Made by a program: the position numbers and the translations under genes. From Actinomycetota bacterium (lineage in GTDB: Bacteria > Actinomycetota > Humimicrobiia > Humimicrobiales > Humimicrobiaceae), in NCBI GenBank assembly GCA_016783985.1, contig JADHVM010000009.1, positions 1-20,331 of the forward strand: DNA of 20,331 nucleotides. Direction: 5' to 3'. The notes under the pieces are model-generated. The model was not told where the DNA came from. It searched no databases and saw only the letters and a list, made by a program, of their open reading frames with translations. Below, piece after piece: positions 1-16,394 of the stretch; within the stretch, counting starts at the first letter, position 1; every line of letters starts with the position of its first letter.

Positions 1-1527
1 TGAAAATTCATCTCCTCCCCACCTGGCAATAATATCTTCTGCTCTGAAGAAAATTTTTATCATATTAGCTACCCTCTTTAAAAGCTTATCTCCCTCCTCA
101 TGGCCAAAAGCATCATTTACTAGTTTCAGGCTGTTTAAATCACAAATTATCATAGAAATTGGAAGCTGTCTCTTTGTATTAAGTCTATCAAGTTCTGATT
201 CAAAATATGCTCTGTTGTATAGGCAAGTTAGTTTGTCGTGAAAAGAAAGGTATTTTAACTTTTCTTCTGTTTTCTTTTTCTCTGTTATGTCACGAACTAT
301 TCCTTCGTAGTAAATTATGCCATCTATATTATGAATTACTATAGAATTAATTTCTGCCCATATAATAGATCCATCCTTTCTCCTAAGTTGGGTTGTAAAT
401 ATTTTTTTTCTATCTTTAGGACCTGGGCGGTCTGATTTTTTTACATACAGTTGTGTTGGTATATCAATCTTTAAAAGCTCTTCCTTGTTTTTATACCCAA
501 GCATCTTTACTAATGCCTGATTTACATCTAAATATTTTCCCTTCACTGTAGTTCTATAAATACCATCAAGTGATCTTTCAAACAGTAAGCGGTATTTTCT
601 CTCACTTTCCTTTAGAGTTTCTCTGTCAGCTAATCTTGCAACAGCACCACCTATCAGGTTTGCTATACTCTCAAGTATACTGCGAGTGTTAACTGGTATT
701 TCACTTAATGTATGTGATGCAATATTAAGGCAGGCAATTACACTGCCTTCATGCTTGATAGGGATAACGGCAATAGCAAGAAGCTTTTCTTTATATCTAG
801 TTCTATCCAGAGGGACACCAAGTTTTTGATATTGTGTATATATGGGTTTTCCAGCCATTACTAGTTTAGCACTTGGCGAGTCTTTACTGTATTTTAATAT
901 ACTCTTTATAAAGCTTTTAGGCAGTCCTTTTAAATAGGAAAGATTTATATCTTGTGTTTCACTATCAACAAGATAGGCTCCACCGCAATCCATTCCTGTA
1001 GTTTCAATAGCTGTATCGACACATACTTTAAGTGCTTTACTCAAATTAGAAATGCTGCTTAGCTTGGTAATAAGGTTGCGCTGTATTTTAATTAAGTCTT
1101 CAATCTTCTTTTTATATGTAATATCCATAACTACTATATGGAAGCCTGTGATTTTATTTTCTTCCTTAATTGTTTTAAGGCGGGCTTCACCTATATAACT
1201 TGTTCCATTTTTATGCTTCTATGATATTTCAAATTTTGGTATTTTCTTATCTTTTAATACTTTTAAAACCATTTTAGTGAGTCTATGAATATCTGTTACT
1301 TTTAATAATTTAAGTTTAGTAAAATTTTTCTCTATTAATTCTTTCCTTGTATAACCAGTATAATCAAGAACTAATTCATTACATGATTTAATATTTCCCT
1401 TTATATCAATTGTTATAATTCCTACTGGAGATAGCTCTATAATGTTTCTATATTTTTCTTCACTATAACTGAAATTCTTTTTAGAAGTTTTATAATAATT
1501 TTCTAATTTGTTTGTTTTATTTTTCAT
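1..1527 (-). pseudogene. PAS-GAF-PAS-GGDEF sensor diguanylate cyclase, interrupted by one in-frame TAG, 3' end outside window
   Basis: The frame is open from the ATG at 1527 to the left edge (509 codons) except for one TAG at 1219-1221 (codon 103). I checked every in-frame triplet from 1 to 1218 and found no other stop or shift. Codons about 18-135 form a PAS domain. Codons about 150-300 look like a GAF domain, and about 307-425 form a second PAS starting ESERKYRLLFE and ending in a VRDVTEKKKTEE linker. A GGDEF domain follows (LSFHDKLTCLYNRAYFE, FGHEEGDKLLKRVA, RWGGDEF at codons 502-508); its end lies off the window. No membrane segments are visible, so it is probably a cytoplasmic sensor making cyclic di-GMP. 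The stop falls inside the first PAS, just before KHKNGTSYIGEARLK, where Trp is plausible (TGG to TAG). The upstream piece encodes 102 residues. It could be a recent pseudogene, a sequencing error or a read-through gene; no Shine-Dalgarno precedes the ATG. Confidence 0.8.
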
Positions 1528-6568: not shown

Positions 6569-7897
6569 TTAAAAATTACCAAAAGGTAATTTAGAGCTTC
6601 TATCAAGACTTGAAAATTGCTTTAACATCTGTTTTGTCTTATTAAACTGTTTTAATAATCGATTTACATCAGAAACAGTAGTTCCGCTTCCACTTGCTAT
6701 TCTTTTTTTTCTACTTCCATTTATAATAAAAGGTTTTCTTCTTTCATCTACTGTCATTGAATTAATAATAGCTTCAACCCTATCCAGTTGTGAGTCATTC
6801 AAATTAACATTCTTTAAAATTTTACTTTTATTTTTTATAGGAATCATAGAAAATATTTTTTCAAGTGATCCCATTTTCTTTATTCCTTTTAGCTGGTAAA
6901 CAAAATCTTCAAAATTTAATTCATTCTTAAAGATTTTTTCTTCCATTTCCTTTGCTTTTTTTTCATCGATCACTTTTTCTGCATTTTCAATTAATGTCAG
7001 GACATCACCCATTCCAAGTATCCTGGAAGAAATTCTATCTGGGTAAAATTGCTCAAAATCTTCTATTTTTTCTCCAGTAGAAATAAATTTTATAGGCTTT
7101 TTTATAACATAATATATAGAGAGAGCAGCACCACCTCTTGCATCACTATCTAATTTTGTTAAGATTATTCCATCACATTCTAATCTTGAATTAAATTCTG
7201 AAGCAATATTTACAGCCTCCTGTCCAGTCATAGCATCCAATACTAATAATATTTGATGCGGCTTCACTTTATTCCTAATATTTTCAACTTCTCTCATCAT
7301 ATTTTTATCTATCTGTAGTCTTCCTGCAGTATCTATAACAATTACATCACTACCTGCTTTTTTAAAGAACTCTACACCGTTATAAGATATTAAAACAGGA
7401 TCTTTATTTTCTTCTGAATAAACTTCTATATTAACTGATTTTGCCAAATCCTTCAGTTGAAGCACAGCAGCAGGTCTATAAATATCTGCAGCAACAACTG
7501 CAACTTTTTTTTGGTAATTTTTCTTTAAAAAATTTGCAAGCTTTATAGCTGCTGTTGTCTTACCTGTTCCCTGTATACCAACCATTAAAATAATAGTTGG
7601 AGACTTTCCAGAAAAGTTTATTTCACTGCTGTTGTTTCCAAGCATTGCTGTAATTTCTTCATTTACTATTTTTATAATCTGTTGTGAAGGTGTAAGACTC
7701 TCTAAAATTTTCCCACCTATTGCCTTTTTTTTAACTCCTTCAATAAACTCTTTTACTACCTTAAAATTTACATCAGCTTCTAAAAGTGCTAATTTTATCT
7801 CTCTTAATGATTTATCCAGATCATTAGGACTTAGTTTTCCTCTATTTCTTATTTTGTAAAATAAATCTTCAAATTTTGTTGTCAGAAATTCAAACAT
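6569..7897 (-). CDS. ffh: Signal recognition particle protein Ffh (SRP54)
   Basis: Ffh is the protein subunit of the bacterial SRP. It binds signal sequences of nascent membrane and secreted proteins together with the 4.5S/6S RNA and docks on FtsY. The 442-residue protein has an N domain (about 1-90), a G domain with the P-loop GIQGTGKTTAA (107-117), DTAGRLQ (from 189), TKLDSDARGGAALS (from 247) and the closing GMGDVLTLIENAEK. The M domain (about 305-442) has RIASGSGTTVSDVNRLLKQFNKTKQMLKQF, the SRP RNA-binding helices. Length and motifs are normal. It lies directly after ftsY without the ylxM gene that often precedes ffh in Firmicutes. The AGAGGA upstream is rather far from the ATG (about 12 bases). 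No SRP RNA gene is seen in the window. Confidence 0.98.
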   Translation of the reverse strand: MFEFLTTKFEDLFYKIRNRGKLSPNDLDKSLREIKLALLEADVNFKVVKEFIEGVKKKAIGGKILESLTPSQQIIKIVNEEITAMLGNNSSEINFSGKSPTIILMVGIQGTGKTTAAIKLANFLKKNYQKKVAVVAADIYRPAAVLQLKDLAKSVNIEVYSEENKDPVLISYNGVEFFKKAGSDVIVIDTAGRLQIDKNMMREVENIRNKVKPHQILLVLDAMTGQEAVNIASEFNSRLECDGIILTKLDSDARGGAALSIYYVIKKPIKFISTGEKIEDFEQFYPDRISSRILGMGDVLTLIENAEKVIDEKKAKEMEEKIFKNELNFEDFVYQLKGIKKMGSLEKIFSMIPIKNKSKILKNVNLNDSQLDRVEAIINSMTVDERRKPFIINGSRKKRIASGSGTTVSDVNRLLKQFNKTKQMLKQFSSLDRSSKLPFGNF

Positions 7898-7949: not shown

Positions 7950-8822
7950 CTAAGAAAAAATCATTTCTGTAAATTCTTCAGGATCAAAACAACAAATATT
8001 ATCTATTTTTTCTCCATTTGTCAAAAATTTTATAGGAATATTTAAATCATTTTTTATTGTAAGAATAATTCCACCTTTTGAAGAACTGTCAACTTTAGTA
8101 AGTATAATTCCTGTTATTTTTAATGCTTCGTGGAAAACTTTAATTTGAAATTTAGCATTTTGTCCGGTTGTTGAATCTAAAACCATTAATATTTCATCTA
8201 CATCTCTATTTAATTTCTTACAGATTACCTTTCTGATTTTTTTAAGCTCTTCCATTAAATTATAAGATGTTTGCATCCTACCTGCTGTATCAATCAATAC
8301 AATATCTATTTTCTTTGCTAATGCCTTCTCAAGGCTATCATATACAACTGCTCCTGGATCTGAATGCCTTTGATGATATACAATATCTAATCCAAGGTTT
8401 TTTGCAAAGTAATCAATTTGTTCAACTGCAGCTGATCTATAAGTATCTGCAGCTGAAATCAATATTTTATTCCCCATTTTTTGAAATAAATTAGCTATCT
8501 TCGCAATAGTTGTTGTTTTCCCAACACCATTTACTCCAACAAACATAATTACAGTTGGTGTTATTTTTGAAATATTGATTTCCCTTTTTCCATTACTTGA
8601 TAGGATATTTACTATTTGATTTTTTAACAAATTTTTTATAACTTTTACATCTTTAATATTTTCCCTAAATGAATATTCTTTTACATCAGATAACATTTTT
8701 TCTGCAGTATTAACACTGACATCACTTAATATTAAATGCTCTTCCAATTCATCCCAAAATTTCTTATTATCTTTTTTAAAGTTATTCCATAAGTAATTTA
8801 AATTCTTAATTAATTTTTGCAT
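7950..8822 (-). CDS. ftsY: Signal recognition particle receptor FtsY
   Basis: FtsY is the membrane-associated SRP receptor GTPase that pairs with Ffh. I start it at ATG 8822 (290 residues), because the alternative TTG at 8834 lies inside the TTGGAA that serves as Shine-Dalgarno. Motifs, numbered from that ATG: an NG-domain N helix (WNNFKKDNKKFWDELEEHL), P-loop GVNGVGKTT at 96-104, DTYRSAAVEQ at 126, DTAGRMQ at 178 and TKVDSSSKGG at 242. The acidic A domain found in enterobacterial FtsY is absent, as in many Gram-positive and deep-branching bacteria, so membrane contact probably relies on the N-terminal helix. The start overlaps the 3' end of smc by 17 bases. The stop is TAG with an in-frame TAA four codons on. 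The smc-ftsY-ffh order is classical. Confidence 0.97.
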   Translation of the reverse strand: MQKLIKNLNYLWNNFKKDNKKFWDELEEHLILSDVSVNTAEKMLSDVKEYSFRENIKDVKVIKNLLKNQIVNILSSNGKREINISKITPTVIMFVGVNGVGKTTTIAKIANLFQKMGNKILISAADTYRSAAVEQIDYFAKNLGLDIVYHQRHSDPGAVVYDSLEKALAKKIDIVLIDTAGRMQTSYNLMEELKKIRKVICKKLNRDVDEILMVLDSTTGQNAKFQIKVFHEALKITGIILTKVDSSSKGGIILTIKNDLNIPIKFLTNGEKIDNICCFDPEEFTEMIFS

Positions 8823-11091
8823 AATTATTTCCAATTTTTTCTGAAATTATTTTAGAAACCCCATTAGATTGCATGGTTATCCCATAAATAGTATCAGCTA
8901 TCTTCATTGTTCTTTTTTGATGCGTAATTAATATTATCTGCTGTTTTTCTCCAAACTTTTTAATAAAAGCTATAAATCTATTTAAATTTACATCATCAAG
9001 AGTAGCATCGATTTCATCAAATATATAAAAAGGTGAGAAATTAATTGAGAAAATAGAAAATAAAAATGCTATAGATACCAATGATTTTTCCCCACCTGAT
9101 AAAAGCGATATAGGAACAAATTTATTATTACCAATATCCACTTTTAGTTCTATTCCCATTTCATCATAATCACTATTATTATTAAAAAGTTGCATCTCAC
9201 CTTCACCTAACGGAAATAAAATTTTGAAATAATAATTAAAAGTTTTATTTATATCATCAAATTTTTTTAAAAATAAATTTACAATCTTATTATTAATGTT
9301 TTCAACCAGTTCTTCTAGACTTTTCTTACTTTCCACCAAGTCTATTTTTTGTATTTTTAAAAATTCATATCTTTCTTTTATTCTTTTGTACTCTATAGCT
9401 GCATTTGGATTAATACTGCCATAATTTCTTAATTGATTTTTTAGCTTTCTAACAGCCACATGTGAACCTTTGAGATCACTGCTTTGTTTATAATTTTTCA
9501 ATATAACATCCAATGATAAATTATAATTGTCTATTATATTGTTTGTTATATCCTTAACTTTTTCTTTTATTTGATCCTTTATTAAATTACTTTTATATAT
9601 GCTATTCTCCAGATCTGTTTTGGAATAATTTAATTTAATTATTTTATTGCCCAAATCATCTATCTTCTTATGATTATTTTTTAATTCATCCTGCAATTTG
9701 TTAAACTCAGGATAGAATTTATTCTTAATCAATTTAGAATTAATTAAAAATTTGCTTAAAATACTTGAAATTTTAATAGCTTTTGTAAGACTATTCTTAC
9801 AAAAAATCTTTATATTTTTAATTTTTTTAATTCGATCTTTTGTCTCAAGCTTGTTGTCTATTTTGCCATTATCTATTTCATGTTTTCTTATCAACATTTG
9901 TATACTGCTTAATTCTTCCTTTATTAAATCACCATATTTTTTAACCTCAATTATAAATTCTTTTTTTATATCAAACTTCTTTATTTTACTTAATAGATCT
10001 TCCAGTAATTTTTCTATGCTCTTTATTTTATTTAAAATCGTTTCTAGTTTTATTTCTTTTAACTTAGCAGCAGCTTCATTTTTAACATTCTCTGTATTTC
10101 TATCATTTATACCATTTCCATAAAATTCTAAATTAAACATATTGTATAATGTCTTAAAAACGTTTATCTTACTTTCAGCTATAGAAAATAAATTATTTAA
10201 TTCAGCCTCTTTCTGATTAAAATCATTAAATTTATTTTTTAAATTATTAAATCTATTTTCCTTATCAGAAATTGACATTTCATTTTTATCCTTTTCATTT
10301 TTAGTGCTTTCCAACTTATCAGATATTTCATTAATCCTGTTGCTATTTCTTTCACATTTGTTATTTTCATCATCCCAGTTTTTATTTAAATCATTTAATT
10401 GCCTTATAAACAAAGATATCTCTTCTTTCTTTAAAGAATTATAGATTTCAAAATATCTCTGTGCTTTCTTTGCTTCTATTTCTAATGGGTCCATTGTTCT
10501 TTTTACTTCCTGCATTAAATCTTTAATTCTATCTATATCATCCTTTACTTTAAGTAATCTTCCTTTAGATTTATCTCTTCTTATTTTATGTTTCGATATT
10601 CCTATTAATTCTTCTATTACCATTTTTCTATCAATAGGTTTTAAAACAGCAATTTCATTAATCTGCCCTTGATTAACAATTGTGTACAAGCCCTTTCCTA
10701 TTCCACTATCAGCAATCATTTCCTGAATATCCATCAACCTGCATGGAGAAGAATTAATAAAATATTCACTTCCTCCTTTAGAAAATACTCTCCTTGTAAT
10801 TTTTACCTCTTTAAACTCCAGTGGTATAACTTTGTCTGAATTATCAAATGTCAACGAAACTTCAGCAGTTGCTAATTCCTCATTTTTGCTTCTAAAAATC
10901 ACATCCTCCATTGAGTTTCCTCTAAGAGACTTTGGGCTCTGCTCTCCAAGAACCCAAGATACTGCATCAGCAATATTGCTTTTTCCACTGCCGTTTGGAC
11001 CTACAATTACACTGATACCAGGTTGAAATATCAGCAAACTTTTATTTGAAAATGATTTAAAACCTTTTAATATTATATTTTTTAAATACAA
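8806..11091 (-). CDS. smc: Chromosome segregation ATPase Smc, short form apparently lacking the hinge
   Basis: Smc forms the DNA-loop-extruding condensin core with ScpA and ScpB. Both ATPase half-heads are intact: Walker A VGPNGSGKSN (30-39), the Q-loop region WVLGEQSPKSLRG, the ABC signature LLSGGEKSL (663-671), Walker B FYIFDEIDATLDD (688-700) and the ITHQKRTM switch (722-729). The segment GSINPNAAIEYKRIKERYEFL (about 558-578) matches the C-terminal arm-head junction of true Smc. The protein is only 761 residues against about 1150-1200 for the family. The middle (about 170-545) is lysine/isoleucine/asparagine-rich helical sequence, and I find no hinge: no conserved glycine-rich dimerisation motifs and no CxxC zinc hook (Cys only at 117, 246 and 431). 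A loop around 320-330 (LEFYGNGIND) may be the turn. The start is TTG. The frame is unbroken and the ftsY overlap is intact, so a simple frameshift does not explain the length. Placement between rnc and ftsY is canonical. Confidence 0.93.
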   Translation of the reverse strand: MYLKNIILKGFKSFSNKSLLIFQPGISVIVGPNGSGKSNIADAVSWVLGEQSPKSLRGNSMEDVIFRSKNEELATAEVSLTFDNSDKVIPLEFKEVKITRRVFSKGGSEYFINSSPCRLMDIQEMIADSGIGKGLYTIVNQGQINEIAVLKPIDRKMVIEELIGISKHKIRRDKSKGRLLKVKDDIDRIKDLMQEVKRTMDPLEIEAKKAQRYFEIYNSLKKEEISLFIRQLNDLNKNWDDENNKCERNSNRINEISDKLESTKNEKDKNEMSISDKENRFNNLKNKFNDFNQKEAELNNLFSIAESKINVFKTLYNMFNLEFYGNGINDRNTENVKNEAAAKLKEIKLETILNKIKSIEKLLEDLLSKIKKFDIKKEFIIEVKKYGDLIKEELSSIQMLIRKHEIDNGKIDNKLETKDRIKKIKNIKIFCKNSLTKAIKISSILSKFLINSKLIKNKFYPEFNKLQDELKNNHKKIDDLGNKIIKLNYSKTDLENSIYKSNLIKDQIKEKVKDITNNIIDNYNLSLDVILKNYKQSSDLKGSHVAVRKLKNQLRNYGSINPNAAIEYKRIKERYEFLKIQKIDLVESKKSLEELVENINNKIVNLFLKKFDDINKTFNYYFKILFPLGEGEMQLFNNNSDYDEMGIELKVDIGNNKFVPISLLSGGEKSLVSIAFLFSIFSINFSPFYIFDEIDATLDDVNLNRFIAFIKKFGEKQQIILITHQKRTMKIADTIYGITMQSNGVSKIISEKIGNNYAKIN

Positions 11092-11110: not shown

Positions 11111-11830
11111 TCATAATTTTAAATTATATAAAGTCCCTAAAGCATTCCTTGCAGCTTCCTGTTCGGACTGCTTTTTACTTTTTCCTTCTCCTTTTCCTAT
11201 AACTTTATTATCCATAATAGCAATTGAATAAAATACTTTATTGTGAGCAGGGCCCTTAGATTTTTCCACTTTATATTTAATCAATTTTAGATAATCGGCC
11301 TGAACTAATTCCTGCAGATGAGTTTTATAATCTGAAATTTTATCACTTTCAATTTTATCATCTATCTTTTGCTTATATATTTTTAAAATCCACTTAGAAG
11401 TAAAATCTATTCCTTTATCTATATATAAAGCTCCTATAAATGCCTCAAGACTATCCGCAAGGATAGATTCTTTGTATCTTCCTTTAGATAATTCTTCATT
11501 TTCACTTAATAAAATATAGCTGTTAATTTTTATTTCCCCAGTAGCAATTTTCACCAGTGTTTTTTTATTAATTAAAATCGACCTAATTTTTGCCAATTTG
11601 CCTTCTGGAAAATAGCCATAATTTTTATATAAATAAGATGTGATTACAAAAGAGAGAATACTATCTCCTAAGAATTCAAGCTGCTCGTTACCCCTTGAAT
11701 TAATATCAAATTGGCGGGCATAAGATCTGTGTGTTAGACTTTGTATAAAAATCTCTAAATCATTGGCATTTATTTCCAAACCTTCAAGCCAATCTTTAAC
11801 TCTTTTTCTTAACACTCCTTCTTTAACCAT
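11111..11830 (-). CDS. rnc: Ribonuclease III
   Basis: RNase III cuts double-stranded RNA, including the 16S and 23S precursor stems. The 239-residue protein has an N-terminal catalytic domain with the signature GNEQLEFLGDSILSF (E49, E52, D56) and the second metal-binding pair in ESILADSLEAFIGALYID (D126, E129). A C-terminal double-stranded RNA-binding domain follows (about 165-236), starting at YKTHLQELVQADY and ending KGEGKSKKQSEQEAARNALGTL. All catalytic residues are present and the length is normal. There is no Shine-Dalgarno before the ATG. It stops with TGA 19 bases before smc. The acpP-rnc-smc-ftsY order is widespread in low-GC bacteria. Confidence 0.98.
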   Translation of the reverse strand: MVKEGVLRKRVKDWLEGLEINANDLEIFIQSLTHRSYARQFDINSRGNEQLEFLGDSILSFVITSYLYKNYGYFPEGKLAKIRSILINKKTLVKIATGEIKINSYILLSENEELSKGRYKESILADSLEAFIGALYIDKGIDFTSKWILKIYKQKIDDKIESDKISDYKTHLQELVQADYLKLIKYKVEKSKGPAHNKVFYSIAIMDNKVIGKGEGKSKKQSEQEAARNALGTLYNLKL

Positions 11831-12170: not shown

Positions 12171-13175
12171 TTAACTAATTATTTCTTCCTTGATTCTTTT
12201 AACAATATTTCTTTCAATACCATCAGCAGCTACCTTTATAGCATTTGTTATTGCTTTTGATTTCGAGCTTCCATGAGATATTATTACTATACCGTCAACG
12301 CCTAAAAGTAAAGCGCCTCCGTATTCTTCATAATCAAATTTCTTTTTCATATTTATAAAATATTTCTTTAATCCTATACCATATAATTTTGTGATAATAT
12401 TTTTAGTTAAAACATTTTTTATTTCAGTAAAAAATAATTTAGACATCCCCTCAAAAGATTTTAATATGACATTTCCAACAAACCCATCACATACAACTAC
12501 ATCAGACTTTCCTTCAAAGATATCCCTGCCTTCTATATTACCTATGAAATTAATATTTGATTCTTTTAAAAGGTTGTAACCTTCAGCTACTGCTTCACTT
12601 CCTTTTTTCTTCTCAGTTCCTACATTTATAAGTCCGATTCTTGGATTATTAATACCAAAGATACTTTCACAATAAATTTTTCCCATAATAGCAAATTGTT
12701 TTAAATACATAGGTTTAATATCAACATTAGCTCCAGCATCAATAAGAACAACTTTTTTTTCAGCTAACGGTATTACAATTGCAATTGCCGGTCTTAATAT
12801 ACCTTCTATTCTTTTTAAATTGAATAGAGAACATGCCATAACAGCACCCGTATTTCCAGCAGATAAAAATGCACTATTATCTAATTTTGATACAAAATTT
12901 GTTCCAATATATATAGAAGAATTTTTTTTATGCTTAACAACATTTGATGGAGAATCATCCATCTTTATTTCATCAGTACTATTAACTATTTCAAAATCAC
13001 TTATGTCTAACTCATTTAAAGACGCAAATCCGTTTATTTTCTCCTTGTTGCCAACTAAAATAATTTTTATATTTATATTTTTCGCTGCATTTACAGCACC
13101 TTTGATTATTTCACCAGGAGCATAATCTCCACCCATGGCATCAACAATAATTAAATATTTTTTTTGACCATCCAT
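12171..13175 (-). CDS. plsX: Phosphate acyltransferase PlsX
   Basis: PlsX makes acyl-phosphate from acyl-ACP and orthophosphate, feeding PlsY for the first acylation of glycerol-3-phosphate in phospholipid synthesis. It is a peripheral membrane enzyme. Visible motifs are IVDAMGGDYAPGEIIKGA near the N-terminus, NVVKHKKNSSIYIG, SAGNTGAVMACSLF, PAIAIVIPL, VLIDAGANVDIKP, IGLINVGTEKKKGSEAV and VCDGFVGNVILKSFEGM, all typical of the family, followed by GGALLLGVDGIVIISHGSS. Length (334) is normal. I use ATG 13175; a TTG at 13178 immediately before it is equally possible given the AAAGGA about 10-13 bases upstream. In this neighbourhood fakA supplies acyl-phosphate from free fatty acids, which PlsX can load onto ACP in reverse. 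Confidence 0.98.
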   Translation of the reverse strand: MDGQKKYLIIVDAMGGDYAPGEIIKGAVNAAKNINIKIILVGNKEKINGFASLNELDISDFEIVNSTDEIKMDDSPSNVVKHKKNSSIYIGTNFVSKLDNSAFLSAGNTGAVMACSLFNLKRIEGILRPAIAIVIPLAEKKVVLIDAGANVDIKPMYLKQFAIMGKIYCESIFGINNPRIGLINVGTEKKKGSEAVAEGYNLLKESNINFIGNIEGRDIFEGKSDVVVCDGFVGNVILKSFEGMSKLFFTEIKNVLTKNIITKLYGIGLKKYFINMKKKFDYEEYGGALLLGVDGIVIISHGSSKSKAITNAIKVAADGIERNIVKRIKEEIIS

Positions 13176-13184
13176 CAATTCTAT

Positions 13185-13200
13185 ATTATCCTTTGATAAT
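13185..13200 (-). promoter_or_regulatory. Small hairpin containing the plsX Shine-Dalgarno
   Basis: A perfect 6-base inverted repeat with a 4-base loop (AUUAUC-AAAG-GAUAAU in the transcript) lies in the 36-base gap between the DRTGG-protein stop and the plsX start. The only Shine-Dalgarno-like sequence for plsX, AAAGGA, spans its loop and 3' arm. If the hairpin forms, the ribosome site would be partly masked, which could couple plsX translation to the upstream gene. The stem is short and AT-rich, so the effect may be nil. Confidence 0.2.
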
Positions 13201-13211
13201 CTTGTATTTTT

Positions 13212-14276
13212 TTAACCCTTTGCAATTTCTATTAATTTGTCTACATCTATGTATTCCCTTACAACTTCAGTCACTTTATTTATTTTTTTTGCTTCATGAA
13301 ATCTTACACGACCTATAATCTCTTCTACTTTTTCTACTGCTGTAAGCGTATCATAATTTACAAGTATCATCGGAACTCCAATTTCTTCTGCTCTGCCTAA
13401 TACTACACTGCTTGGTTGAAAATTTCCTGTAAGTATCAAACATTTGGTTGATGTTTCTAAAGCTGCCAGCTGTACATCAGCTCTATCACCACCTGTAATA
13501 ACAGCTTTATTAGTTTTTCTTCTAAAGAACTTAAGAGCCTGTTCCTGTCCCATAGCACCTACCATAAATGATTCTACCATTTCGTCAACTTTATCTTCAC
13601 CACAGATTATCTGTCCGCCCAGAAATCTAGCAATTTCTTTAACGCTAACTGATGACAGCATTTTATCTGAAGTTATATATCCAAAAACTCTGATATTATT
13701 TCTTTTTAGATAAGGCAGTATTAACTCCTCTAAATATTCAAGCTGGCTTCTAGGAACCCAATTTAATATTACTCCTCCAAAATAATCCCCTAAAAATTCT
13801 TTAGATATTAATACCTGGTCAATAATCTCGCAACAAGATTTAACAACCAATATAGCTTTTGCTGAGATACTTTTACAGATTTCCCTTGATGATATACCTA
13901 AATAATAACCATCTTCAACACTTTTAGCACCCTCTAATAATATTATGTCCTTATCTTTCTTAATCTTATTGTAAGACTTATTGATATTTCCAAGAAAACC
14001 TTTTGAAAAATCTTTATCTTTCAAACCTTCTCTCAAGTATTGTTGAGTTATAACAATAGGAGATATATCATTCAATTTATCTTTTACACCCAGTATAGAA
14101 GATATATACTGAGCATCTTCATCTGTTGTTATACCACCTACTCTTATTGGAAGAGTTCCAACAGGCTTCATATACCCAACTTTTAACCCTTTCTCTAATA
14201 GAATTTTACCAATACCAACACATATCGAGCTCTTACCCGAAAAAGATTGATTTGAAATAAAAAATAACGGTACCAT
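13212..14276 (-). CDS. BioD-like/DRTGG-domain protein (COG0857-type, Pta N-terminal-like)
   Basis: The 354 residues match the stand-alone version of the regulatory half of long phosphotransacetylases: an N-terminal dethiobiotin-synthetase-like P-loop domain followed by a DRTGG domain. The P-loop is SNQSFSGKSSICVGIG (about 8-23), then GYMKPVGTLP and ILLEGAKSVEDGYYLG. The DRTGG half (about 210-320) holds FLGGQIICGEDKVDEMVESFMVGAMG, AVITGGDRADVQLAALET and CLILTGNFQPS. The catalytic acetyl-phosphate domain of Pta is absent, so it should not make acetyl-CoA from acetyl-phosphate by itself. It follows the ADP-forming acetyl-CoA synthetase by 15 bases behind a strong AAGGAGGTTAGA, so the two are probably co-translated. 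I infer a regulatory or nucleotide-sensing role in acetate/acetyl-CoA flux. The biochemical function of stand-alone members is not established. Confidence 0.85.
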   Translation of the reverse strand: MVPLFFISNQSFSGKSSICVGIGKILLEKGLKVGYMKPVGTLPIRVGGITTDEDAQYISSILGVKDKLNDISPIVITQQYLREGLKDKDFSKGFLGNINKSYNKIKKDKDIILLEGAKSVEDGYYLGISSREICKSISAKAILVVKSCCEIIDQVLISKEFLGDYFGGVILNWVPRSQLEYLEELILPYLKRNNIRVFGYITSDKMLSSVSVKEIARFLGGQIICGEDKVDEMVESFMVGAMGQEQALKFFRRKTNKAVITGGDRADVQLAALETSTKCLILTGNFQPSSVVLGRAEEIGVPMILVNYDTLTAVEKVEEIIGRVRFHEAKKINKVTEVVREYIDVDKLIEIAKG

Positions 14277-14291
14277 TCTAACCTCCTTCTT

Positions 14292-16394
14292 TTAATTTCC
14301 TATTCTTATTCTTGCATCTCCGGCTATTGAGCCTTCTCCTCTCTCTTTCACAAATAATGGATTAATATCCATTTCTATTATCTCCTGAAAATCTGTAACA
14401 AGCTGTGAAAACCTAAGTAAAATTTCTATAATACTTTCTATATCTGATGGTTTTTCTCCTCTGGTGCCTCTTAGTAAATTTATAGTTTTTATCTCTTCTA
14501 CCATCTCTTTTGCAACTTTCCTGCTGATCGGAGCTACTCTAAAAGAGACATCTTTTAATATTTCAACATATATTCCCCCTAAACCAAACATGACTATAGG
14601 CCCAAATTGGGGATCATAATTCATACCAATAATAGTTTCCTTTTTAGATTTTATCATTTCTTGAACTAAAATTCCCCTAATTTTAGCATCAGGCATATGT
14701 TTTTTTACATTCCATAATATTTGATCATAATTTTCTTCCAATTCTTTTTCATTTTCAATACCAATTTTTATGCCCCCAACATCTGTCTTATGTAAAATTA
14801 CAGGAGAAACAATTTTTAAAACTACAGGATAGCCTATCTTTCTAGCAATCTTTCTAGCTTCATTTACGTCTCGAGCAAGTTCAGCTTTTGGAACATCAAT
14901 TTTATAAGCCTTAAGTATCTCTCTTGATTCCATTTCTCCTAACTCTAATCTCCCATCATTTCTGCATACGTCAAATATTTCTTTAACTTTATTCTCATTT
15001 ACATCAAATTCTACAATTGGATCAGCTTTTTTAGATATCCAATCACTATGATCCATTAATACTTTCAAAGTATACACTGCTTCTTCCGGTATATCGAAAT
15101 TAGGAATTCCTTTTCTCATTAACAAGTCAATGCCTTTTTTAACTTCAAATCCCCCCATAAAACTGGTAAATACAGGCATTTTCTTTTTCGTTTTTTCCAT
15201 TACTTCAATAATTGACATAGCTGTCTTGAGTGATTGAGTCATAGCTTGTGGTGTAAGCAATATTAGTATAGCATCTACATTTTTATCTTTTATAACTGCC
15301 TCTAAAGTTTTTCTATACCTATCTGCTAAAGCATCCCCTAGTACATCAATTGGATTATAAAAACTAGCAGTTTCAGGCAGAAATTCTTTGAGTCTATCAA
15401 TTGTCTCACTTTTTAAATTAGCCAGTATTATATTATTCTCTTCACAAGCATCAGTTGCCATAATACCAGGCCCGCCTGCATTTGTTATTATTGCAACCCT
15501 TTTCCCTTTAGGTAATGGTTGATTTGATAAACCAATTGCATAATTGAATAGATCCTTTATAGTTTTTGCCCTTATTACTCCTGCTTGTTTAAATGCAGCA
15601 TCATAGGCCTTTGAGGAACCTGCTAATGTTCCAGTATGTGAAGATACTGCTTTTGCGCCTGCATCAGTATTACCTGCCTTTATAATAACAACAGGTTTTT
15701 TCTTTGAAACTTTTGAAGATATTCTTAAAAAATCCTTTCCATTCTTAACACCTTCCATATATACAGTTATAACCTTAGTTTTATCATCGTCTGCCCAATC
15801 TTCCAATAAATCATTTTCTGATATATCTGCCTTATTGCCTAAAGAAACAAATTTGGATAAACCTATCTTATTTGTTCTTGCCCAATCAAGAATTGCTGTA
15901 CCAAGAGCACCGGATTGCGATATAAATCCAATAACCCCTTTTTTTGGCATATTTGGAGAAAAAGATGCATTAATAGGACAATTACTATTAATAATTCCCA
16001 GACAATTAGGACCCAGTATTCTAATCCCATAATATTTGGCTTTTTCTATTAATCTCTTTTCCATTTTTGCACCCTTAATACCAGATTCTTTAAATCCTGC
16101 TGAGATAATTATTACCCACTTGGTAGTTTTCTCTGCACATTGTTCAATAACTTTAGAAACATACTTACTTGGAATCACTATAATAACTAGGTCTATATCT
16201 ATAGGAGTATCTAAAATGGATTTATAACATTTAATATTATGAATTTTATCTGCTCTAGGATTAATTAGAAATAATTTACCTTTATATCCAGAATCAATCA
16301 TATTCTCAACTATTGTATTACCAACTTTTCCTTCTTCCCTAGAAGCTCCTATTATAGCTACAGAGCGGGGGCAAAAAAAATTGTCGAAACTCAA
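14292..16394 (-). CDS. acd: Acetate-CoA ligase (ADP-forming), fused alpha-beta subunits
   Basis: This 700-residue fused NDP-forming acyl-CoA synthetase converts acyl-CoA + ADP + phosphate to acid + ATP + CoA, a substrate-level phosphorylation step common in archaea and some anaerobic bacteria and protists. Domains run from a CoA-binding Rossmann fold (1-130, SVAIIGASREEGKVGNTIV) to a succinyl-CoA-ligase-like part (150-450) with FISQSGALGTAILDW and the phosphohistidine loop SSHTGTLAGS (H253), and a C-terminal ATP-grasp domain (about 480-690) with LKIVSPVILHKTDVGGI and EMDINPLFV. The start is TTG 16394 behind GGAGG six bases away. The domain order is alpha then beta, as in the 700-residue bacterial and Giardia/Entamoeba forms. 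Acetate is the likely substrate by analogy, but propionate or branched acyl-CoA (from amino acids) cannot be excluded. It sits between rpmF and plsX, near the place where clostridia keep pta-ackA. Confidence 0.92.
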   Translation of the reverse strand: MSFDNFFCPRSVAIIGASREEGKVGNTIVENMIDSGYKGKLFLINPRADKIHNIKCYKSILDTPIDIDLVIIVIPSKYVSKVIEQCAEKTTKWVIIISAGFKESGIKGAKMEKRLIEKAKYYGIRILGPNCLGIINSNCPINASFSPNMPKKGVIGFISQSGALGTAILDWARTNKIGLSKFVSLGNKADISENDLLEDWADDDKTKVITVYMEGVKNGKDFLRISSKVSKKKPVVIIKAGNTDAGAKAVSSHTGTLAGSSKAYDAAFKQAGVIRAKTIKDLFNYAIGLSNQPLPKGKRVAIITNAGGPGIMATDACEENNIILANLKSETIDRLKEFLPETASFYNPIDVLGDALADRYRKTLEAVIKDKNVDAILILLTPQAMTQSLKTAMSIIEVMEKTKKKMPVFTSFMGGFEVKKGIDLLMRKGIPNFDIPEEAVYTLKVLMDHSDWISKKADPIVEFDVNENKVKEIFDVCRNDGRLELGEMESREILKAYKIDVPKAELARDVNEARKIARKIGYPVVLKIVSPVILHKTDVGGIKIGIENEKELEENYDQILWNVKKHMPDAKIRGILVQEMIKSKKETIIGMNYDPQFGPIVMFGLGGIYVEILKDVSFRVAPISRKVAKEMVEEIKTINLLRGTRGEKPSDIESIIEILLRFSQLVTDFQEIIEMDINPLFVKERGEGSIAGDARIRIGN

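What the first reader, a model, noticed from the sequence alone, without database searches (positions are those of the whole stretch)
8806..11091. Smc of 761 residues with complete ATPase heads but no recognisable hinge and short arms
True Smc markers are all present: Walker A, ABC signature, Walker B, the NPNAAIEYKRIKERYEFL junction, and the rnc-smc-ftsY context. The region between the heads is only about 375 residues (170-545) instead of roughly 800-850 in typical Smc, and I see no hinge sequence and no Rad50-type CxxC hook. The two helical stretches either side of the loop near 320-330 are unequal (about 150 and 210 residues). LEFYGNGIND resembles the segment that usually leads into the hinge, as if the hinge were deleted after it. 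The hinge is the constitutive dimerisation site, so this protein would have to dimerise by another route, act through its heads and ScpA/ScpB, or work as a different machine in a standard smc locus.
Basis: partly seen in the sequence, partly recalled or inferred. Interest (0 to 1): 0.72.

Follow-up and report, generated by a model that had tools for sequence, protein, structure and literature searches.

The report
Naturally hingeless Smc chromosome-folding protein
This uncultured actinobacterium carries an Smc chromosome-folding motor that has lost the hinge thought to hold its two halves together; close relatives share the loss and other actinobacteria have lost it independently, so nature has already run the experiment of removing the hinge.

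Summary
Confirmed, and wider than reported. The 761-aa Smc (minus strand, 8806-11091) has complete ATPase heads and no hinge: no Pfam SMC_hinge hit at E<=1, none with an actinobacterial hinge HMM, only helices between the heads in AlphaFold. It is no artefact: 119 of the 120 listed homologues are 760-794 aa, one a fragment, and SMC_hinge is found in 0 of 40 genomes of the class. ScpA (36 of 40) and a ParB-type protein (35 of 40) are kept; no second Smc appeared in 17 genomes. So it is most likely the lineage's condensin Smc, not a different machine. Three further actinobacterial groups, one named Solirubrobacterales, also lack the hinge. Head trees give four losses; three is the firm minimum. 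Hinge-less SMCs were already reported in oceanic Actinobacteria (PMC12153180), so the kind is known. New here: the short-arm variant of this class, its ScpAB/ParB context, and the repeated losses. How two Smcs are joined is not shown; I favour ScpA bridging, head engagement and distal-arm contacts.

The parts
8806..11091 (-). smc, 761 aa, hinge-less Smc (TTG start)
10597..11091 (-). N-terminal ATPase half-head, residues 1-165; Walker A at 10978-11001
10108..10596 (-). N-terminal arm, one predicted helix, residues 166-328
   Evidence: block pLDDT about 75-91 up to residue 320, lower after
10132..10185 (-). distal conserved patch, residues 303-320: highest-scoring 18-residue window in residues 236-507 (0.616; runner-up 490-507 at 0.602); candidate substitute contact site (inferred)
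9847..10107 (-). tip in place of the hinge, residues 329-415: loop plus two short helices (347-371, 377-406), poorly conserved
9403..9846 (-). C-terminal arm and joint, residues 416-563
8806..9402 (-). C-terminal ATPase half-head with its last helix, residues 564-761 and stop; signature LLSGGEK 9085-9105, Walker B 9007-9030
11111..11830 (-). rnc (ribonuclease III), directly upstream
7950..8834 (-). ftsY (SRP54-type GTPase), overlapping the end of smc; listed start is TTG, the true start may be a few codons later
6569..7897 (-). ffh (SRP54)

Best explanation
This is the orthologue of bacterial Smc, still serving as the ATPase of an Smc-ScpAB condensin with a ParB-type loader, in a lineage that lost the hinge and much of the distal arms. 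SHOWN: complete heads at the standard locus; no hinge in the protein or, by Pfam search, anywhere in 40 relatives' genomes; ScpA, ScpB and a ParB-type protein kept in most of them; a single Smc; strongly conserved length. INFERRED: each monomer is a head with a helical hairpin about 160 residues long, ending in a small helical tip. Two monomers are joined at the head end by ATP-dependent head engagement and by one ScpA binding the neck of one Smc and the cap of the other (established for Smc-ScpAB, not tested here). At the far end they are joined not by a hinge but by contacts of the distal arms (conserved patch 303-320, C-arm 425-465) and/or the tip helices. The result is a 'core-only' motor that can extrude loops but has no hinge gate for bypassing obstacles.
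For: No hinge: no SMC_hinge among the precomputed domains of the 120 listed hits; 0 of 40 class genomes; 10 of 14 control genomes positive; no strand in residues 141-629. Smc identity. Partners: ScpA 36 of 40, ScpB 15 of 17, HTH_ParB 35 of 40. Single copy. Constraint: P-loop to signature is 644 or 645 residues in 106 of 120; patch 303-320 ranks first in the arms. Literature: the hinge fold is replaceable by a zinc hook in B. subtilis (PMC5344682, section 12); a Wadjet JetC lacking the elbow-to-hinge part still cleaves plasmid DNA, but only while held closed by a disulfide (PMC12647877, section 10), which argues for some substitute closure.
Against: The tip is poorly conserved (mean 0.35 for 321-415), unlike a dedicated interface. 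The lead of patch 303-320 over 490-507 is slight, and the patch is absent or altered in the basal class members G018 and G037 (by eye), which were not in the conservation set. The AlphaFold model is a monomer with pTM 0.38 and poorly modelled heads, so it says nothing on dimers. The window's own genome is not held, so its ScpA, ScpB and ParB are inferred from relatives, the nearest being G027, whose Smc is 90% identical over residues 1-401 and which has ScpA and HTH_ParB. At a loose threshold one of 17 genomes gave a weak SMC_hinge match (G001, E 0.056, 14.6 bits, a 59-residue frame), which I take for chance.
Confidence: 0.62

Rival explanations
1. Open tweezers: the two Smcs are joined only at the heads and by ScpA, with no contact at the far end. 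The complex never forms a ring closed at the tip, and DNA is held by heads and kleisin alone.
For: No recognisable dimer module; the tip is weakly conserved in two independent hinge-less groups.
Against: Arm length is nearly invariant, which a loose end would not obviously require. The hinge-less JetC core lost activity when its cross-link was reduced (PMC12647877).
Confidence: 0.25
2. A diverged hinge is present in residues 321-415 but unrecognised.
For: Profile searches miss some real hinges: Caulobacter rings for SMC_hinge only at a loose threshold, and my hinge HMM misses G230 and G142, which Pfam detects.
Against: Only about 87 residues lie between the arm helices and no strand is predicted; the Pfam hinge alone is 116 positions. 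No hit with the actinobacterial hinge HMM. The tip is the least conserved part. In the 1018-aa group 27 bases stand where 173 profile positions are missing (G083).
Confidence: 0.04
3. It is a different machine (Rad50/SbcC or RecN-like repair protein), and chromosome folding is done by something else.
For: Its hinge-less hairpin outline resembles SbcC/Rad50.
Against: It scores far below the Rad50 and RecN cut-offs (66.5 against 700; 46.6 against 407.85 bits) and above the Smc cut-off. No CxxC hook. RecN-sized SMC_N matches (about 590 aa) exist besides it in most of the 17 genomes. ScpA, ScpB and a ParB-type protein are retained.
Confidence: 0.04
4. The hinge is supplied in trans, by a separate protein or a second full-length Smc.
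For: The genomes are drafts; 4 of 40 gave no Smc match at all.
Against: A six-frame search finds no SMC_hinge at E<=0.01 in any of 40 class genomes, and no second Smc stands among the listed SMC_N matches of 17 genomes (the list is cut at its weak end).
Confidence: 0.02
5. Assembly collapse or a fresh deletion in this one contig.
For: None found.
Against: 119 of the 120 listed homologues, from several sources, are 760-794 aa long.
Confidence: 0.01

Closest known systems
Bacterial Smc of Smc-ScpAB (SMC_prok_B, TIGR02168)
   Same: Heads, Walker A/B, signature, head-arm junction, rnc-smc-ftsY locus, ScpA/ScpB/ParB context in relatives; profile above its cut-off.
   Different: No hinge; P-loop to signature 633 residues, against 842-1090 in the hinge-bearing actinobacterial Smcs extracted here, most of them over 960.
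'Hinge-less' SMC of oceanic Actinobacteria (PMC12153180; section 15 read in full, passages of the Discussion seen)
   Same: SMC heads, antiparallel coil, no hinge, no CxxC, in Actinobacteria.
   Different: Marine clade assigned by its authors to class Actinomycetes; they call a paralogue unlikely and leave open lineage loss and function. Its sequences are not held here, so kinship with the window's family is untested.
Wadjet JetC(core), an engineered hinge-less SMC (PMC12647877; abstract, section 10 and Discussion read)
   Same: Head and arm core without the distal periphery.
   Different: Engineered; needed a disulfide to stay dimeric and active.
Rad50/SbcC
   Same: Heads plus coil without an SMC hinge.
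   Different: Dimerises by a CxxC zinc hook, absent here.

Membership tests
Bacterial Smc (canonical) | ABC ATPase head halves with Walker A, signature, Walker B | tested here: met
Bacterial Smc (canonical) | SMC_prok_B profile above curated cut-off | tested here: met
   613.8 against 567.35 bits, in two pieces
Bacterial Smc (canonical) | SMC hinge domain | tested here: not met
   hence filed as a hinge-less variant, not as a canonical Smc
Bacterial Smc (canonical) | long antiparallel coiled-coil arms | tested here: inconclusive
   Helices predicted at 166-328 and 416-523; pairing and register not measured; much shorter than usual
Bacterial Smc (canonical) | kleisin ScpA and KITE protein ScpB in the same genome | tested here: inconclusive
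   Window's own genome not held; in relatives ScpA 36 of 40, ScpB 15 of 17
Bacterial Smc (canonical) | rnc-smc-ftsY locus | tested here: met
   same order in L077 and L084 by eye
Bacterial Smc (canonical) | constitutive homodimer | not testable with these tools
   Only single-chain prediction available
Hinge-less SMC (PMC12153180) | SMC heads, no hinge, no CxxC, actinobacterial | tested here: met
Hinge-less SMC (PMC12153180) | same clade as the oceanic cluster | not tested
   Those sequences were not at hand
Rad50/SbcC | CxxC zinc hook at the tip | tested here: not met
   0 of 120 listed homologues
RecN | RecN profile cut-off | tested here: not met
   46.6 against 407.85 bits
MukB/MksB | MukB-type heads with MukE/MukF partners | not tested
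   No MukBEF search was made; the Smc profile fits and ScpAB are present in relatives

The most novel reading that the evidence does not exclude
The hinge is dispensable in nature: actinobacteria have discarded it at least three and probably four times while keeping the kleisin ScpA, and in the window's class also ScpB and a ParB-type loader. These are natural 'core-only' condensins that fold chromosomes without an SMC-kleisin ring closed at the far end and without hinge-gated obstacle bypass. The two-helix tips predicted in two independently derived groups would then be mere caps; if instead they are clasps, dimerisation without a hinge was reinvented.
Probability: 0.3. Interest if true: 0.87.

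Novelty: new variant of a known kind. Interest (0 to 1): 0.64.

Why it matters
The hinge is taught as the permanent joint of SMC rings. Recent work on Wadjet concludes that it is a gate for bypassing obstacles and not needed for loop extrusion as long as the ring is closed (PMC12647877). Lineages that lost it repeatedly, yet keep the kleisin, turn that into a testable natural experiment: is the ring closed some other way, or is closure unnecessary? The same paper notes that SMCs without a hinge channel tend to have longer arms; the window's class goes the other way, with neither hinge nor long arms. The Solirubrobacterales group suggests cultivable subjects (that members are cultivable is recalled, not from a call).

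Tried and rejected
Assembly artefact: rejected, because the architecture is shared by the listed homologues. Divergent hinge missed by Pfam: a hinge HMM from 26 actinobacterial hinges hit 53 of 102 Smcs (28.0-117.4 bits; the 26 used to build it are among them) and not the window or any of the other hinge-less ones. It also missed four long Smcs: G230 and G142, which Pfam does detect, and G174 and G204, which I class as long and divergent rather than hinge-less. Zinc hook: rejected. LEFYGNGIND as hinge-entry relic: not supported. One common loss for all hinge-less groups: rejected (AU p = 9.5e-47). Also rejected: 1018 with 916 (2.0e-5), class with 780 (6.3e-15), 780 with 1018 (7.1e-5), 780 with 916 (6.0e-6). 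NOT rejected: class with 916 (0.357) and class with 1018 (0.118), so the firm minimum is three losses against four on the best trees. The first genome-contig scan, with the single protein, found nothing; the repeat with an alignment worked. Foldseek listed known SMC, Rad50 and MukB structures and added nothing on the tip. Paper searches for 'hingeless' SMC and 'monomeric Smc' with ScpA found no paper; 'hinge-less' with SMC gave 3 papers, of which I read parts of one (PMC12153180); the other two were seen only as listings.

Rows dropped: of 116 loci put into the extraction, 15 yielded no complete Smc ORF. The remaining 101 and the window made 102 sequences; 15 were left out by hand to thin the set before the 87-row tree, and 29 of the 87, long branches among them, before the 58-row tree.
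Full report
WHAT IS THERE. The window holds a complete 761-codon smc gene on the minus strand (8806-11091), between rnc (11111-11830) and ftsY (7950-8834), followed by ffh. The heads are intact: Walker A 31-38, signature 663-669, Walker B 688-695, junction 561-578. Against PDB sequences the two halves match Smc head constructs: residues 1-216 and 551-753 against entry 5xg3. SMC_prok_B scores 613.8 bits against a cut-off of 567.35.

THE HINGE IS ABSENT. Pfam SMC_hinge does not appear at E<=1. A hinge HMM that I built from 26 actinobacterial hinges hits 53 of 102 Smcs at 28.0 to 117.4 bits and not the window's; it also misses four long Smcs (G230, G142, G174, G204), so its silence alone is no proof. 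AlphaFold2 on 62 sequences (mean pLDDT 70, pTM 0.38, heads poorly modelled) gives helix 166-328, a low-confidence loop, short helices 347-371 and 377-406, then helix 416-523, with no strand in 141-629. No CxxC occurs in the 120 listed homologues.

IT IS A FAMILY TRAIT. Of 7,982 homologues scored, the best 120 are listed: 119 are 760-794 aa and one is a 619-aa fragment; none shows SMC_hinge among its precomputed domains. Names given are Actinobacteria/Actinomycetota bacteria, Candidatus Hydromicrobium and Candidatus Humimicrobiaceae, which NCBI places in class Candidatus Humimicrobiia. A scan of genome contigs returned 18 loci, one of them archaeal. The other 17 lie in genomes that all fall in one class of 40 held genomes, among them Ca. 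Hydromicrobium americanum (L003, G003) and Ca. Humimicrobium oleiphilum (L017, G017); I use NCBI's class name for it, the tool tells none. SMC_hinge is found in 0 of 40 at E<=0.01, against 10 of 14 control genomes. In the first 17, at E<=1, one weak match appeared (G001, E 0.056, 14.6 bits, 59-residue frame). The window Smc finds a match in 36 of 40. By my count of that table 26 have one intact frame, 9 are partial or lie on two contigs, and 1 is split (G012). Intact proteins, with the starts I chose, run from 730 to 893 aa. The divergent members G018 (849 aa) and G037-G039 (885-893 aa) also lack the hinge.

PARTNERS. ScpA is found in 16 of 17 loci genomes and 36 of 40 of the class; ScpB in 15 of 17; HTH_ParB in 35 of 40 (this family does not separate ParB from its kin such as Noc or plasmid ParB). 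SMC_N shows one Smc in each of 17 genomes among the listed matches, best first; other long matches have sizes of RecF (about 400 aa) and RecN (about 590 aa), names given here from length, not from a test. The genomes are drafts of unstated completeness. The window's own genome is not held. The nearest is G027, 90% identical over Smc residues 1-401, with ScpA and HTH_ParB and no hinge.

WIDER: REPEATED LOSS. In a sample of 296 genomes of the phylum, SMC_prok_B matches 292 and SMC_hinge 233 at E<=0.01, 231 over its cut-off. Of the 63 without a match, 28 are class members and 35 are not (by difference between the two calls; one search names only 20 of the 63). By my reading the 35 are: 19 whose Smc runs from N-arm to C-arm without room for a hinge (G252 with stops in the second match, G105 and G233 cut at one end), 11 too broken to judge, 3 long and divergent (G174, G204, G114; hinge probably kept), and 2 without Smc. 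Among the 19 are three architectures. (i) About 1018 aa, arms of full length with the hinge cleanly gone: in G083 the profile matches 2-507 and then 681-1179 with 27 bases between. (ii) 916 aa. (iii) About 780 aa, whose named relatives are Solirubrobacterales. ScpA was found in 16 of the 16 tested of these 19, in G191 and G091 over only the first 100 or so positions. The 120 best listed relatives of (i), 1014-1064 aa, and of (iii), 698-822 aa, show no SMC_hinge either. AlphaFold on a member of (i) (mean pLDDT 72.5, pTM 0.30) again gives two short helices (479-498, 503-524) at the tip and no strand in 120-890.

TREE. Head domains only, so the trait's own columns are left out. The 87-row quick tree needs 4 changes for the hinge-less label (3 forced by starred branches). 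The 58-row careful tree needs 4, all forced, and none of 200 bootstrap trees has one. The Solirubrobacterales-type group sits beside hinge-bearing Smcs G181/G239 (100/100). AU tests on the quick tree reject all hinge-less as one clade (9.5e-47), 1018 with 916 (2.0e-5), class with 780 (6.3e-15), 780 with 1018 (7.1e-5) and 780 with 916 (6.0e-6), but not class with 1018 (0.118) or class with 916 (0.357). So three losses at least, four the best estimate. Caveats: class branches are long and their composition is skewed; groups were named after the tree was seen; the direction (loss) rests on the hinge being general in SMCs, which is established knowledge.

CONSTRAINT. The distance P-loop to signature is 644 or 645 in 106 of 120 class-like proteins and 893 in 110 of 120 of the 1018 group, but spread in the Solirubrobacterales-type group (637 in 9 of 120 the commonest). 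In the first two, arm length is held nearly constant without a hinge, as expected if arms align in a rod (inference; length rules for hinge-bearing arms are in PMC5344682, passages and section 12 read). In 137 sequences of the window's family (basal G018 and G037-G039 not included) residues 303-320 form the most conserved 18-residue window of the arms, barely ahead of 490-507; Cys431 is also strongly conserved; the tip is poorly conserved. In the 1018 group conservation lies along the arms, not at the tip.

MECHANISM. Shown: a kept ATPase, kept kleisin, ScpB and ParB-type loader in relatives, no hinge. Inferred: head engagement and ScpA bridging hold two Smcs; distal arm contacts replace the hinge. 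The JetC core had to be held closed to act (PMC12647877), which favours a substitute contact; nothing here shows one, and an open complex remains possible.

PRIOR WORK. PMC12153180 (section 15 read; passages of its Discussion) describes an abundant oceanic 'hinge-less' SMC clade in Actinobacteria; the authors think a paralogue unlikely and leave lineage loss and a different function open. My searches for natural hinge-less SMCs turned up no other report, within open-licence papers and, within the 15 listed of 473 and 230. The present data favour lineage loss of the sole Smc, several times over, for the groups seen here.

Noticed in passing
L171, L172, L173 (G042, G057, G071): Hinge-bearing Smcs with shortened arms (967-985 aa). 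Two of them come out as weakly supported sisters (80/45) of the hinge-less class in the 58-row tree, but the 87-row tree puts the three elsewhere; arms may have shortened before the hinge was lost.
   Followed up: partly
L191-L193 (G191, G278, G091): Solirubrobacterales-type hinge-less Smc of about 780 aa with a variable acidic insert before the signature (e.g. about residues 621-655 of P0241).
   Followed up: partly
L185-L188 and P0121-P0240: 1018-aa hinge-less Smcs with a P-loop to signature distance of 893 in 110 of 120 and conserved patches along the arms (e.g. ETEEGYRERIRLLE, LVRAEGSEAAGRAT).
   Followed up: partly
L196 (G204), L087 (G174), L116 (G114): Long Smcs with no Pfam hinge hit; they look like diverged hinges rather than losses. 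G204 has a very long branch.
   Followed up: partly
L085 (G012, smc): smc split into two frames with an ambiguous residue nearby; probably a draft-assembly fault. Left as it is.
   Followed up: no
window 1-1527, minus strand: A 102-aa ORF (1219-1527), PAS-like by eye, just upstream of a GAF-PAS-GGDEF gene (1-1128, cut by the window's end); possibly one gene interrupted.
   Followed up: no
window 12171-16394, minus strand: A DRTGG/AAA_26 protein beside an acyl-CoA synthetase-type protein (CoA_binding, Succ_CoA_lig, ATP-grasp domains), upstream of a plsX-like gene (by eye). The DRTGG-type gene recurs beside plsX, rnc and smc in several class loci (L078-L085, by eye).
   Followed up: no
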